From: Ruminococcus sp. | GTDB lineage: Bacteria; Bacillota; Clostridia; Oscillospirales; Ruminococcaceae | NCBI GenBank assembly: GCA_015066845.1 | Contig: SVNO01000008.1 | Location: forward strand, 1 to 44,426 | DNA length: 44,426 nt | Direction of reading: 5' to 3' | Shown here: piece by piece, positions 37,273 through 41,297 of the stretch | Layout of the letters: each line of letters begins with the position of its first letter | Numbering within the stretch: the stretch's first letter is position 1 | The notes under the pieces: model-generated | Told to the model about the DNA's origin: nothing | Seen by the model: the letters and a program-made list of their open reading frames with translations, nothing else | The model's database searches: none | Program-made: the position numbers and the translations under genes

Positions 37273-37303
37273 AAGGGGCGATGCAGTGGCATCGTCCCTT
37301 TTT
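37273..37303. terminator. Terminator shared by rubredoxin and the convergent TOPRIM gene
   Basis: AAGGGGCGATGC (37273-37284) / GCATCGTCCCTT (37289-37300) followed by T-run, A-run on the other side. The stem resembles the GGGACGATG hairpins of the repeat arrays at 130, 13674 and 13930. Confidence 0.92.
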
Positions 37304-38111
37304 ATGGGGTATCAGAGGTAATCACAGTGTCATAAAAACCATTCTGATTGCCATAATAATCTACAATCAGGAAAAGGCTGGTGTTCAGAACATAGAGCTT
37401 TGCTTCATTGCTGATTTTTACAGCCTGACAGTCTGCAATGTTTTTTGCTGTTGAAACATTCAGATAGGTTTCATAGTCGGTGAGTATGTCAAAGCAGGGC
37501 GCGGCTACGGATTTCAAACGTCCGAGATTCATGCAGATAAGATTGGTGAAATCTGCTCTTGTATAAGTATCTATGTTTTTCCCTGCTAAGCATTTCGTGC
37601 TTGCACATTTTTTGAACTCCGCCATTTTGTCAATGGGAATTTCAGGAGCAGGGTAGCCCTCCTCCTCACAGGTATCGCAATAGCGATAGGACTCCATCAT
37701 GGGGTAATTGATGTACAACCGCCCGATGGTCGGGTCGGTTTCGTCCGTAAAATGTTCAGCCATTTCAATCAGCTTGGGGAAATTATCTGTCAATCTGTCT
37801 GCAATGGTTACATCTTCTTTTATTTTTCGCAGGTGCGGTGATTTGTTGTGCAGATCCGCATCAAAGACCAGATAGGTGTATGTGAATTTCTCATGATAAA
37901 GTGTTTCGCATATCTCCTCATCAGGAACGATCTCACGCAGTACATCCCTGATATCACATGCAAATTCATAGGCTTTACACTTGGCATAGAGCGAATAGAG
38001 ATTCGTACCAACAACGAAAAGCTCCGCTTCCAAGCCGAATTGTCGGAGCAATCCCTTGAAGAACGCAGGCTCTGTTTTTGCCCCCTCTACGATTAACAGT
38101 ATTTTCTTCAT
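37302..38111 (-). CDS. TOPRIM-like protein of an ATPase-linked defence pair (RloB/AbiL/AriB-like)
   Basis: 269 residues. LLIVEGAKTEPAFFKGLL opens the protein, with Glu9 as the TOPRIM metal Glu; LVFDADLHN (Asp84, Asp86) is the DxD. INYPMMES near 134-141 resembles the P-x-F/M-E motif of RloB-like nucleases. Four cysteines (145, 148, 169, 174) may bind zinc. It overlaps the ATPase gene by four bases (ATGA). OLD-like, AbiL, RloAB and PARIS systems all combine an AAA15-type ATPase with a small TOPRIM nuclease, so a phage-triggered toxin or nuclease role is likely by analogy. The DNA is visibly AT-richer than the neighbours, hinting at transfer. Exact subfamily not settled. Confidence 0.82.
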   Translation of the reverse strand: MKKILLIVEGAKTEPAFFKGLLRQFGLEAELFVVGTNLYSLYAKCKAYEFACDIRDVLREIVPDEEICETLYHEKFTYTYLVFDADLHNKSPHLRKIKEDVTIADRLTDNFPKLIEMAEHFTDETDPTIGRLYINYPMMESYRYCDTCEEEGYPAPEIPIDKMAEFKKCASTKCLAGKNIDTYTRADFTNLICMNLGRLKSVAAPCFDILTDYETYLNVSTAKNIADCQAVKISNEAKLYVLNTSLFLIVDYYGNQNGFYDTVITSDTP

Positions 38112-39226
38112 GGCTCTACAAATGCTCCATTGATATACATCTTTTCCAGATTGTGTGCTTCACGGATCTCCTTGTCCGTTGCGCTGCGCAGATTGGTGAT
38201 CCTGTTATTTGACATCAGGAAACAGCAATCCGGTCTTGTCAGGCGATTCTGCATCAGGTAGGTATTATGTGTAGTAAGAATACTCTGAAACCTTGGCTCT
38301 GCATTATTCAGAAGCTTTACAAGCCGTTCCGCAGCTTCATAGTGCAGAAATGCGTCAAATTCATCAATGAACAGCAGGGACAGCTTAGGATATGCCTGTA
38401 GGCTCCATGCATAATACAGGAGCAGCATTTTTGTGCCTGTGGAAGCCAGTGCAGTAAATGGTGCTTTGTTTTTGCCGTCATTAAAATAGGCATACAATAC
38501 ATATTTGTCGTTTTCTTCCTCAAAACCGAGCTGATAATTCACATCATTGCTTCGCAGGAATTCTTCAAATTCTGCGAGCTTTCCCTCTCGATGGATAATG
38601 TCCGTGGGCTTTTCATCCTCAAAGCTGGGGGTAAATCCCATAAAAGAATTACCGTCGGACAAACTGCGGTACCAGAGCATATTATTGCAAAACTGCATCA
38701 GCTTTGTCAGGGGGGATTCAGGATTGACGGGGGTATTGCGGTAGATATATTTCAGCACGGACAGCGTTCCTTCTGTCGGCTCAATATTCAAAGTTCCTTT
38801 TAATGAGGGGTGTACGAAGTTTCTATCAGCAAGCTCATCGAAATGAAAGTATTCAATCAATCGTTCCCTGTTTACTTCCAGCAATTCCCATAAAAGAGTG
38901 CTCTGATTGGCTTTAAGATATTCATAAACAACACGGTCGTTTCCGAACTTAAACTGGTATTGAAATGCCACCGGATTATCAGGATGATGCAGATTTCTAT
39001 AAATTTTAACTGTTTTTTTGTGATTGTCCGTCAGATGCGTGGTAATATCGAACAGAGCCATACCCAAGGCACTTTTGCCAACTCCATTTTTTCCGTACAC
39101 GATCGCCTTGTTTACCACGCCGTTATAGACAAGATTCTGGTTAAAATTATAGTTATGGGCGGTCAGATCCCATTCCAGAAGTTCTGAAAATCCCATAAAA
39201 TTATCAACCTCAAAACGCTCCAGCAT
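38108..39226 (-). CDS. AAA15/OLD-like ATPase of a defence pair
   Basis: 372 residues. VDNFMGFSE near the start is the typical SMC/RecF-like N-terminal strand; Walker A is YGKNGVGKSALG (Lys51). STGTKMLLLYYAW near 258 stands where the ABC signature is found; Walker B LLFIDEFDAFLHYE (about 284-297) and TTHNTYLMQN (318-327) complete an ABC-type ATPase site. Such proteins act as sensors that hold a TOPRIM partner in check. The ATG at 39226 follows TAGGAGTG; the longer frame up to 39289 would run through the repeat element and is rejected. Its AT-rich composition, partner and lone position between repeats suggest a mobile defence module. Confidence 0.88.
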   Translation of the reverse strand: MLERFEVDNFMGFSELLEWDLTAHNYNFNQNLVYNGVVNKAIVYGKNGVGKSALGMALFDITTHLTDNHKKTVKIYRNLHHPDNPVAFQYQFKFGNDRVVYEYLKANQSTLLWELLEVNRERLIEYFHFDELADRNFVHPSLKGTLNIEPTEGTLSVLKYIYRNTPVNPESPLTKLMQFCNNMLWYRSLSDGNSFMGFTPSFEDEKPTDIIHREGKLAEFEEFLRSNDVNYQLGFEEENDKYVLYAYFNDGKNKAPFTALASTGTKMLLLYYAWSLQAYPKLSLLFIDEFDAFLHYEAAERLVKLLNNAEPRFQSILTTHNTYLMQNRLTRPDCCFLMSNNRITNLRSATDKEIREAHNLEKMYINGAFVEP

Positions 39227-39315: not shown

Positions 39316-39344
39316 ATTATAGCACATTTTCCCTTCAAGGTCAA
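39316..39344 (-). promoter_or_regulatory. Promoter of the ATPase-TOPRIM operon
   Basis: TTGACC (39339-39344), 17 bases, TATAAT (39316-39321), 90 bases before the start codon. Confidence 0.85.
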
Positions 39345-40082: not shown

Positions 40083-40240
40083 CAGTCTGTCGAAAAAGCG
40101 ACGGCTTAAAGAGATTTCGCGCACTGCGGTGCGCGACCAGAGGACTTTGTCCTCTGGACTCCTACGAGCTTTTTGAAAAAAGCTCGACCAAAAACTTTTC
40201 CATTGCCTCCGGCATAAGAGGATCGTTTTTCGACAGACAG
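40083..40240. mobile_element. Hairpin-array repeat, copy D, with intact terminal inverted repeats
   Basis: 158 bp bounded by CAGTCTGTCGAAAAA (40083-40097) and TTTTTCGACAGACAG (40226-40240), 14 of 15 bases inverted. Inside: CGCGCACTGCGGTGCGCG (40118-40135), CCAGAGGACTTTGTCCTCTGG region (40137-40157), GAGCTTTTTGAAAAAAGCTC (about 40166-40185), then the shared module CCATTGCCTCCGGCATAAGA. This is the copy that best shows MITE-like boundaries. No coding capacity. Confidence 0.83.
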
Positions 40241-40269
40241 AAACGCTCCGGAACAACTCCGGAGCGTTT
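40241..40269. terminator. Hairpin at the 3' end of the NadA-like gene
   Basis: AAACGCTCCGGA (40241-40252) / TCCGGAGCGTTT (40258-40269), twelve paired bases with a five-base loop, 11 bases past the gene's stop. The flanking T-run is weak. Confidence 0.75.
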
Positions 40270-40280
40270 GGCTTTTCGTA

Positions 40281-41222
40281 TTACAGCACACCAAATGCCT
40301 TGTACATTTTCTCAATCAGGCTGACAATTTTCTCAGAGGATGCGGAATCCATCTTCACTTCCGTTCTTCCGTCCGGTGCATTGTCAAAATCACAGGCATC
40401 AAGCACCTTGTCCAGACGCATGACATTGAATACACTACAGGAAATATAATTGCTCAGATGCACAAACTGCTTGTCGGGGAATTCTCTGCACATGCGCAGG
40501 TAGAAATTCTTCTCCACGCCGAGAATAAAGGTCTTGCAGTCAGAATTTGCAATGATTTCCATCATTTTGCCCGTACCAATGGCATAATCTGCCTTTGCAG
40601 TGATGGCTTCACAGCATTCCGGATGTACCATGACAAGCGCGTCAGGGTATTCCTCGCGCAGCTGCTCCAAATCATTGACGGATGCACTGTTGTAGACATT
40701 GCAGGTGGGCTGATTCGGATAAACCAGTACTTCCTTGTTCACCTTGCGCATGGCTTCTCTGGTGCAGTTGTACTCGCCAACATAAAGCAGACGTTCTGCA
40801 TCCACATGGTTGATGACTTCCGGTACATCGCCCGGAAATGCAATATAATCGGCAAGCAGCTTGATGCTCAGAGGGGAAGTGCCGTAGACAACCAGCGGCA
40901 GTTCCGGATACTGGTCACGCCAGAGCTTTACATGGTCAAACTGAAGCATATTGTCCATTGCCACAGGGCAGGTAGAGCCTCTGTCGGGAACGAACACATG
41001 CTTGTCACCCATGTAGGCAGCTGTCAGCTCTGCGAAGAAAGTCGGTGCAAGTACGAGGACATTTTTCTGCTTGCAGCCCTTGACAACATGGAGGAAGAAT
41101 TCGCGGCTGTCACCGAGGACATCAGCAATTTCGTGGGTTTCTGCCGGTGCGTAGTGGTGGGCAATGATGAAAATATCATGTTTCTTTTTCAGTTCTTGGA
41201 TTTTCTGGATTTGTGCATTCAT
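40281..41222 (-). CDS. NadA (quinolinate synthase) family protein, divergent
   Basis: 313 residues. Canonical NadA condenses iminoaspartate with DHAP to quinolinate on a [4Fe-4S] cluster. The fold is recognisable: IIAHHYAPAETHEIADVLGDS at the N-terminus, STCPVAMDNM near 84, YPDALVMVHPEC near 192-203, GVEKNFYLRM near 235. But the segment aligned to the CTSSNA cluster cysteine reads IAFPGDV (127-133), and the usual CPNMK/CMNMK reads SCSVFNV (261-267). Only HPEC is clearly canonical. No nadB or nadC is adjacent. It could be a NadA with altered ligands (Cys85, 203, 262) or a paralogue with another job. The ATG at 41222 is chosen by homology; AAAGGA lies upstream. Confidence 0.82.
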   Translation of the reverse strand: MNAQIQKIQELKKKHDIFIIAHHYAPAETHEIADVLGDSREFFLHVVKGCKQKNVLVLAPTFFAELTAAYMGDKHVFVPDRGSTCPVAMDNMLQFDHVKLWRDQYPELPLVVYGTSPLSIKLLADYIAFPGDVPEVINHVDAERLLYVGEYNCTREAMRKVNKEVLVYPNQPTCNVYNSASVNDLEQLREEYPDALVMVHPECCEAITAKADYAIGTGKMMEIIANSDCKTFILGVEKNFYLRMCREFPDKQFVHLSNYISCSVFNVMRLDKVLDACDFDNAPDGRTEVKMDSASSEKIVSLIEKMYKAFGVL

Positions 41223-41249
41223 GGTGGAGTTGTCCTTTCTGGTTTTTTG

Positions 41250-41297
41250 TGGGAATTTTCCCAAGTATAGTATATCAGTTTTTGGGAAATAAGTCAA
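41250..41297 (-). promoter_or_regulatory. Promoter of the NadA-like gene with a palindrome past the -10
   Basis: TTGACT (41292-41297), 17 bases, TATACT (41269-41274). A palindrome TGGGAA-AA-TTCCCA lies at 41250-41263 on the transcript start, and TTTCCCAAAAA lies in the spacer. It may be an operator. Confidence 0.7.

What the first reader, a model, noticed from the sequence alone, without database searches (positions are those of the whole stretch)
37302..39226. AT-rich ATPase plus TOPRIM pair: candidate anti-phage system
Two overlapping genes encode an AAA15/OLD-like ATPase (Walker A GKNGVGKS, Walker B FIDEFD, TTHN) and a TOPRIM-like protein (VEGAKTEPAFF, DAD, YPMMES, four Cys). The pair has its own promoter and terminator, differs in base composition from its neighbours and is followed upstream by a mobile-type repeat end. 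PARIS, AbiL, RloAB and OLD systems share this plan, but the Cys-rich insert (145-174) and the PMMES motif do not fit any of them exactly in my memory.
Basis: partly seen in the sequence, partly recalled or inferred. Interest (0 to 1): 0.72.

Follow-up and report, generated by a model that had tools for sequence, protein, structure and literature searches.

The report
ATPase–Toprim candidate phage-defence gene pair
Two overlapping genes in a bacterial genome encode an ATPase and a partner that looks like a nucleic-acid-cutting enzyme; they belong to an already catalogued but little-studied candidate phage-defence family, probably a guarded toxin that shuts the cell down during infection.

Summary
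Window 39226-37302 (-) holds a two-gene operon: A (372 aa, SMC/OLD-type ATPase) and B (269 aa, Toprim-like), overlapping by ATGA, in the lowest-GC stretch of its size. The family is already catalogued: A and B hit PADLOC's candidate system PDC-M12 (2e-110, 1e-37); a full-text search for that name found no paper. One genome scan found 143 relatives; B or a piece of it follows A in 72 of the best 80. Relatives also ride a filamentous Vibrio phage and 4-kb Escherichia plasmids.

By sequence it is a sister of AbiL/RloAB, not PARIS by the published rule (no DUF4435).

Most likely: the ATPase guards a toxic Toprim nuclease that aborts infection. B is disrupted or absent in 20 of 76 evaluable relatives with full-length A; in Clostridium ragsdalei a 171-bp in-frame deletion removes its DxD. 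Modest interest.

The parts
38108..39226 (-). Gene A: 372-aa SMC/OLD-type ATPase (PDC-M12A; AAA_21), sensor / antitoxin candidate
   Evidence: PADLOC PDC-M12A 2.1e-110; Pfam AAA_21 90.1 bits, cut-off 27; Walker A and B residues and H320 invariant in 46 sequences, this one included
37302..38111 (-). Gene B: 269-aa Toprim-like putative nuclease (PDC-M12B), effector / toxin candidate
   Evidence: PADLOC PDC-M12B 1.1e-37; E9, G10, F83, D84, G130, P137, K167 invariant in 63 sequences, this one included, which were picked for an EG motif and length; profile similarity to RloB P 1.1e-6
38108..38111 (-). ATGA overlap of A stop and B start (translational coupling likely)
   Evidence: sequence
39316..39344 (-). 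sigma-70-like promoter TTGACC-17-TATAAT with extended TG
   Evidence: 11 of 12 matches; consensus match only
37279..37294 (-). terminator-like hairpin and T-rich tail just after B (convergent with the rubredoxin gene)
   Evidence: fewer found than in shuffles

Best explanation
The pair is a complete PDC-M12-type module, a sister of AbiL/RloAB, that probably works as a guarded-toxin (abortive-infection) system. The SMC/OLD-type ATPase A, probably a dimer, binds B and keeps it inactive. A phage-borne trigger changes the ATPase state and frees or activates B. B is a metal-dependent Toprim nuclease (E9, D84, D86, E140, perhaps K167) that most likely cuts a cellular RNA such as tRNA and stops translation, halting phage production. 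Shown here: gene anatomy, family membership, conserved catalytic-type residues, mobile and patchy distribution, and repeated loss of B or of its active site with A retained. Inferred from relatives: toxicity, neutralisation by A, RNA as target. Unknown: the trigger.
For: Both proteins are PDC-M12 members, and 56 of 56 sequences of the B alignment hit PDC-M12B. B or a piece of it was found beside A in 72 of 80 loci. The Toprim-type motif set is conserved. B profile vs RloB: P 1.1e-6, aligning EG, FDxD and PxxE; A vs RloA: E 3.8e-27 over full length; control B vs RloA: probability 0.2%. Carried by a filamentous Vibrio phage (three similar records, one opened), 4.0-4.4 kb Escherichia/Raoultella plasmids (9 of 5426 E. 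coli genomes, no chromosomal place) and viral contigs (8 with full-length A, 7 of them with full B, two of the 8 being 99.9% identical). B disrupted or absent with full-length A in 20 of 76 evaluable loci, 11 of them without the DxD segment. C. ragsdalei vs C. ljungdahlii: a 171-bp in-frame deletion removes FDLDPQD; A dN 0.0034, dS 0.099. Published relatives: two TOPRIM_OLD toxins with AAA antitoxins among pairs validated by toxicity neutralisation (PMC10440598, section 11 read); F. nucleatum AbiLii toxic in E. coli (PMC3985639, passages); PARIS AriB a Toprim tRNase (PMC12409363, abstract and two sections).
Against: No fold prediction or activity test was possible. F. nucleatum AbiLii was toxic, but its AbiLi did not neutralise it, and lactococcal AbiLii was not toxic in E. 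coli (PMC3985639). The loci were chosen by similarity to A, so the sample favours intact A. Found through B, A is full-length in 10 of 11 evaluable loci (7 of 7, 3 of 4, the exception being L040); 20 of 76 B lesions against 1 of 11 A lesions is not significant (Fisher p 0.28). Nine of the 20 B lesions are frameshifts or stops only, some in MAGs, and could be assembly errors. E9 and G10 are invariant partly because I picked B sequences by an EG motif. Neighbours are only modestly richer in defence models, and the window's own neighbours that I scanned are metabolic or unassigned, with a sortase.
Confidence: 0.6

Rival explanations
1. DNA-targeting defence: A and B form an OLD-like two-subunit nuclease, and the ATPase licenses B to nick or degrade phage DNA rather than host RNA.
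For: OLD proteins (PMC10568477, passages) and GajA (PMC10440598, passages) are ATPase-Toprim DNA nucleases. A belongs to the same broad ATPase superfamily. A and B are mostly together.
Against: The closest profiles are RloA/RloB-AbiL, some of whose relatives act as toxins. Recurrent loss of B's catalytic part fits a costly effector better than a target-specific nuclease, but does not exclude it.
Confidence: 0.25
2. Selfish addiction module: a toxin-antitoxin pair that stabilises small plasmids, filamentous phages and genomic segments, with no real role against phage.
For: Main cargo of 4-kb plasmids. Present on a filamentous phage. AAA-neutralised TOPRIM toxins exist, and another AAA-neutralised pair, with a non-Toprim toxin, gave no hits in the BASEL phage screen (PMC10440598).
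Against: The 80 best hits come from genome contigs (chromosome or element not resolved for most). The PDC families are described as guilt-by-embedding candidates (PMC12988326, passages). Addiction and defence are not exclusive.
Confidence: 0.25
3. Housekeeping ATPase and nuclease pair in nucleic-acid repair or cell-cycle control, like archaeal Cran1.
For: Some OLD-family ATPases are not defence proteins (PMC12796447, start of abstract in search listings).
Against: B has a match in 4 of 38 genus genomes and in 16 of 391 class genomes, 5 of these 16 only through sister families. Frequent loss of B and carriage on phage and plasmids.
Confidence: 0.05

Closest known systems
PDC-M12 (PADLOC-DB phage-defence candidate, two genes)
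   Same: Both genes hit the family models strongly and nearly full length; genes adjacent
   Different: Only lineage-specific details seen: a few residues at about 96-100 that most relatives lack, and the private Cys. No paper holds the name PDC-M12 in the library searched
AbiL (AbiLi/AbiLii) and RloA/RloB
   Same: Same two-gene plan; A homologous full length (E 3.8e-27; PADLOC AbiLi 1.2e-40); B homologous over the Toprim core (P 1.1e-6; PADLOC AbiLii 1.7e-5)
   Different: B is below the RloB cut-off (24.1 vs 31.5 bits); A falls in a separate clade from RloA (56 of 56 M12 sequences together, support 0.84)
PARIS (AriA/AriB)
   Same: ATPase plus Toprim-type effector; AAA_21 match 90.1 bits, PADLOC AriA 4e-24; a Vibrio phage record labels its relative 'Paris_II__AAA_21'
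   Different: No DUF4435; no profile match of B to five DUF4435 proteins (probability 0.15%)
AAA-neutralised TOPRIM_OLD toxin-antitoxin pairs (NetFlax nodes D29 with D44/D60)
   Same: ATPase antitoxin beside a Toprim toxin, D44 being RloB-like (PMC10440598)
   Different: Whether those pairs are PDC-M12 was not tested; their sequences were not at hand

Membership tests
PDC-M12 (PADLOC) | A-type ATPase matching PDC-M12A | tested here: met
   E 2.1e-110, residues 1-369 vs model 1-367 of 369
PDC-M12 (PADLOC) | B-type partner matching PDC-M12B | tested here: met
   E 1.1e-37, residues 2-256; 56 of 56 sequences of the B alignment match
PDC-M12 (PADLOC) | the two genes adjacent, same strand | tested here: met
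   ATGA overlap; PADLOC's own system rules were not run
PDC-M12 (PADLOC) | anti-phage activity | not testable with these tools
   a candidate family; needs plating
PARIS | AAA_15 or AAA_21 ATPase at 32 / 27 bits (rule in PMC9122126, passages) | tested here: met
   AAA_21 90.1 bits
PARIS | DUF4435 partner at 27 bits | tested here: not met
   no DUF4435 hit at E<=1, none in the own genome, not among the 25 of 30 families listed for the B alignment, hhalign probability 0.15%
AbiL / RloAB | RloB domain over the Pfam cut-off (31.5 bits) | tested here: not met
   24.1 bits; 31 of 56 sequences of the B alignment match RloB at E<=0.1
AbiL / RloAB | homology of both proteins to RloA and RloB | tested here: met
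   with control; so kin, but a separate clade
OLD (class 1 or 2) | ATPase and Toprim in one polypeptide | tested here: not met
   two ORFs
Toprim nuclease | E...DxD...E metal site in a Toprim core | tested here: inconclusive
   motifs present and conserved; fold not predicted
Toxin-antitoxin | B toxic alone, A neutralises | not testable with these tools
   only indirect: lesions in B

The most novel reading that the evidence does not exclude
In this family the Toprim effector is costly enough to be inactivated repeatedly, by excision of the metal-binding DxD segment or by frameshifts, while the ATPase is kept under purifying selection as a free-standing protector. Effector-less A genes would then act as immunity or anti-addiction alleles against incoming plasmids and phages that carry the full pair. 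The C. ragsdalei / C. ljungdahlii pair would be a ready-made natural experiment.
Probability: 0.2. Interest if true: 0.5.

Novelty: new member of a known kind. Interest (0 to 1): 0.3.

Why it matters
The family is broad (by record titles: Clostridia, Bacilli, Bacteroidetes-type, Kiritimatiellae, Lentisphaeria, Moraxellaceae, Thermoplasmata and other archaea) and is carried by tiny E. coli plasmids and a filamentous phage, yet my searches found no paper that names it. It offers an easy test bed: a complete pair as the main cargo of a 4.4-kb E. coli plasmid, and a natural catalytic-deletion allele in Clostridium ragsdalei. If B proves to be an RNA-cutting Toprim, it would support RNA targets for the AbiL/RloB branch as in PARIS; if it cuts DNA, it would join OLD and Gabija.

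Tried and rejected
Rejected readings: (1) PARIS: fails the DUF4435 test. (2) Cys insert as a defining trait: C145 in 19 of 63, the other three in this protein alone. (3) YPMMES as an unknown motif: it aligns with RloB NPCxE and recurs as SYPAVES and SSPCIEV in sister pairs. (4) Repeat as a mobile-element end of this pair: 41 matches genome-wide and 0.9 kb away. (5) Clean empty site: none found. In four genus relatives similarity ends at the rubredoxin stop; what follows is not shared with the window and, but for two of the four and a 169-base piece, not with each other. nadA has a close relative in one other genome, G008, where it adjoins sequence like window 16.0-24.8 kb, so the order differs there. 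(6) The flavodiiron neighbour as a 'core' contrast: it has a match in 32 of 38 genus genomes, but full length at 87-88% in only 4 besides the own, so I no longer lean on it.

Weak or failed: neighbour survey (120 of 380 near proteins against 120 of 164 far ones, the first 120 of random samples of 150) gave 138 against 57 PADLOC models at E<=1e-10, but most listed models match one protein, so support is modest. B gave no match in phage records by tblastn at E<=0.01, although an HMM finds B beside A in the Vibrio phage. For B, solved structures gave two non-credible sequence matches (E 0.061 and 1.2) and no profile match. My first regex pass mislabelled some intact B genes as broken; the counts used come from profile coverage. 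The 63 B sequences leave out 18 loci (short frames, no EG motif found, or no start) and three duplicates.

Rows dropped before the 20 of 76 count, from 80 loci: L052 and L111 (contig ends), L082 (short contig, ambiguous), L058 (97% identical to L057). L079 was kept though its contig is short.

Full report
WHAT IS THERE. On the minus strand, gene A (39226-38108, 372 aa) and gene B (38111-37302, 269 aa) overlap by ATGA. A promoter-like site (39344-39316) and a terminator-like hairpin (37294-37279) bracket them; both are consensus matches, and the numbers found are not clearly above shuffles. GC is 42.6% against 51.2% for the window; of 1701 equally long stretches the lowest is the one on the pair. 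Neighbours scanned are a flavodiiron/rubredoxin block, a NadA-type gene, a sortase and two unassigned ORFs, not a defence island. Three genus relatives have contigs of the same length as records titled Oscillospiraceae or Ruminococcus MAGs, one from goat omasum.

WHICH FAMILY. A and B match PADLOC's PDC-M12A and PDC-M12B (2.1e-110 and 1.1e-37). Pfam gives AAA_21 for A (90.1 bits) and a sub-threshold RloB for B (24.1 of 31.5 bits). A genome scan with four A sequences found 143 relatives; the best 80 were kept. B or a piece of it was detected beside A in 72 of the 80. Of the other eight, two end at a contig edge, three keep only remnants of B and three lack it, two of these 97% identical to each other. 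A tree of 76 ATPases, rooted on the AriA-like set, places all 56 PDC-M12 sequences, the window included, in one clade (support 0.84), apart from RloA.

B AS A TOPRIM-TYPE PROTEIN. Over 63 B proteins (this one included) E9, G10, F83, D84, G130, P137 and K167 are invariant. D86 is D in 59 and E in 4; E140 is E in 61 and Q in 2. The set was picked for length and an EG motif, so E9 and G10 are partly invariant by selection; 18 loci were left out. Profile comparison with eight RloB proteins aligns the conserved residues with RloB's EG, FDxD and NPCxE (probability 91, P 1.1e-6). The A profile aligns with RloA over its full length (E 3.8e-27). The control, B against RloA, gives 0.2%. B against five DUF4435 proteins gives 0.15%, but that set is small and uniform, and RloB against DUF4435 also fails, so this excludes membership, not remote kinship. 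A against the ATPases beside those DUF4435 genes matches only 84 columns (E 5.9e-11). Of the four cysteines only C145 recurs, in 19 of 63.

DISTRIBUTION. In the genus, B has a match in 4 of 38 genomes: the own, two at 50-52% and one at 27%. The adjacent flavodiiron gene has a match in 32 of 38, but full length at 87-88% in only four besides the own. In the class, 16 of 391 genomes match B, five of them only through sister families. Full-length A is in 3 of 50,697 phage records, all with Vibrio cyclitrophicus hosts; the one opened is a 10-kb filamentous phage with B beside A, labelled 'Paris_II__AAA_21'. Two Oenococcus records match in part. Fourteen of 72,556 plasmid records match A, one of them chromosome-sized, and nine of 5426 complete E. 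coli genomes carry the plasmid pair or part of it, none on a chromosome. Eight viral contigs, two of them 99.9% identical, hold full-length A, seven with full B; in the eighth, L162, no B was detected.

LESIONS IN B. After dropping two contig ends, one ambiguous short contig and one near-duplicate, B is disrupted or absent in 20 of 76 loci with full-length A. In 11 of the 20 the DxD segment is gone; in 9 all motifs remain but the frame is broken. The cleanest case is between named isolates. C. ragsdalei P11 (L083) lacks 57 codons, including FDLDPQD, that C. ljungdahlii (L085) has; the deletion is in frame, with GATATGG at both ends. A differs at 3 of 366 residues (dN 0.0034, dS 0.099); the rest of B has dN 0.010, dS 0.114. 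These rates include time before the deletion. The loci were chosen by A, so the sample favours intact A. Searching by B, A is full-length in 10 of 11 evaluable loci, the window included: 7 of 7 in the class search and 3 of 4 in the earlier ones, L040 being broken. 20 of 76 against 1 of 11 is not significant (Fisher p 0.28). This is suggestive only.

MECHANISM. Relatives guide the inference. In PMC10440598 (section 11 read) two TOPRIM_OLD toxins paired with AAA antitoxins are listed as validated by toxicity-neutralisation assays; for a third AAA-neutralised toxin, not a Toprim, labelling pointed to protein synthesis as target and the BASEL screen gave no hits. In PMC3985639 (passages) F. nucleatum AbiLii is toxic, but its AbiLi did not neutralise it and lactococcal AbiLii was not toxic: a result against simple neutralisation. 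A Fusobacterium vincentii pair fetched here is PDC-M12; whether the tested AbiLii is of this type I could not tell. PARIS AriB is a two-metal Toprim tRNase (PMC12409363, abstract and two sections). I judge an ATPase-guarded Toprim toxin with an RNA target most likely, a DNA-targeting OLD-like nuclease or pure addiction less so. Trigger and target are not shown.

NOVELTY. The family is catalogued, so this is a new member of a known kind. The string 'PDC-M12' is in none of the 5.39 million papers searched. Ten papers hold 'PDC-M' and PADLOC; the PDC-M passages of two of them concern PDC-M13 and PDC-M05. PDCs are described as guilt-by-embedding candidates, most awaiting validation (PMC12988326, passages). 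The own genome holds a second ATPase-Toprim pair of a sister type on another contig (G000:C85).

One search was added; the flavodiiron contrast, the L162 remnant, the 'all relatives' wordings and the identity of L057/L058 were corrected.

Noticed in passing
L216 / G000:C85 about 7.6-9.6 kb (own genome, other contig): A second two-gene ATPase-Toprim operon of a sister type (A best AbiLi 1.9e-53; B PDC-M12B 3.3e-11; motifs FDRD and SYPAVES), near a gene whose start looks to me like threonyl-tRNA synthetase (recall, not tested).
   Followed up: partly
window 40093-40246: Dispersed intergenic repeat of about 150 bases, 41 matches in this genome, itself and short pieces included, about ten of them starting at base 1 of a contig.
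   Followed up: partly
window about 16.0 kb and 40.28 kb: Rearrangement relative to genus relative G008: its nadA adjoins sequence like window 16.0-24.8 kb.
   Followed up: partly
window 40281-41297: NadA-type gene with a close relative (85%) in only one of the other genus genomes; the rest match at about 26-35%. Possibly itself accessory.
   Followed up: no
L083 vs L085 (Clostridium ragsdalei / C. ljungdahlii), about 10.28 kb: Natural in-frame 171-bp deletion in B removing the DxD motif, with GATATGG at both ends.
   Followed up: yes
L127, L129 (4.3-4.4 kb plasmids of E. coli and Raoultella): Minimal Rop-bearing plasmids whose main cargo is the AB pair.
   Followed up: partly
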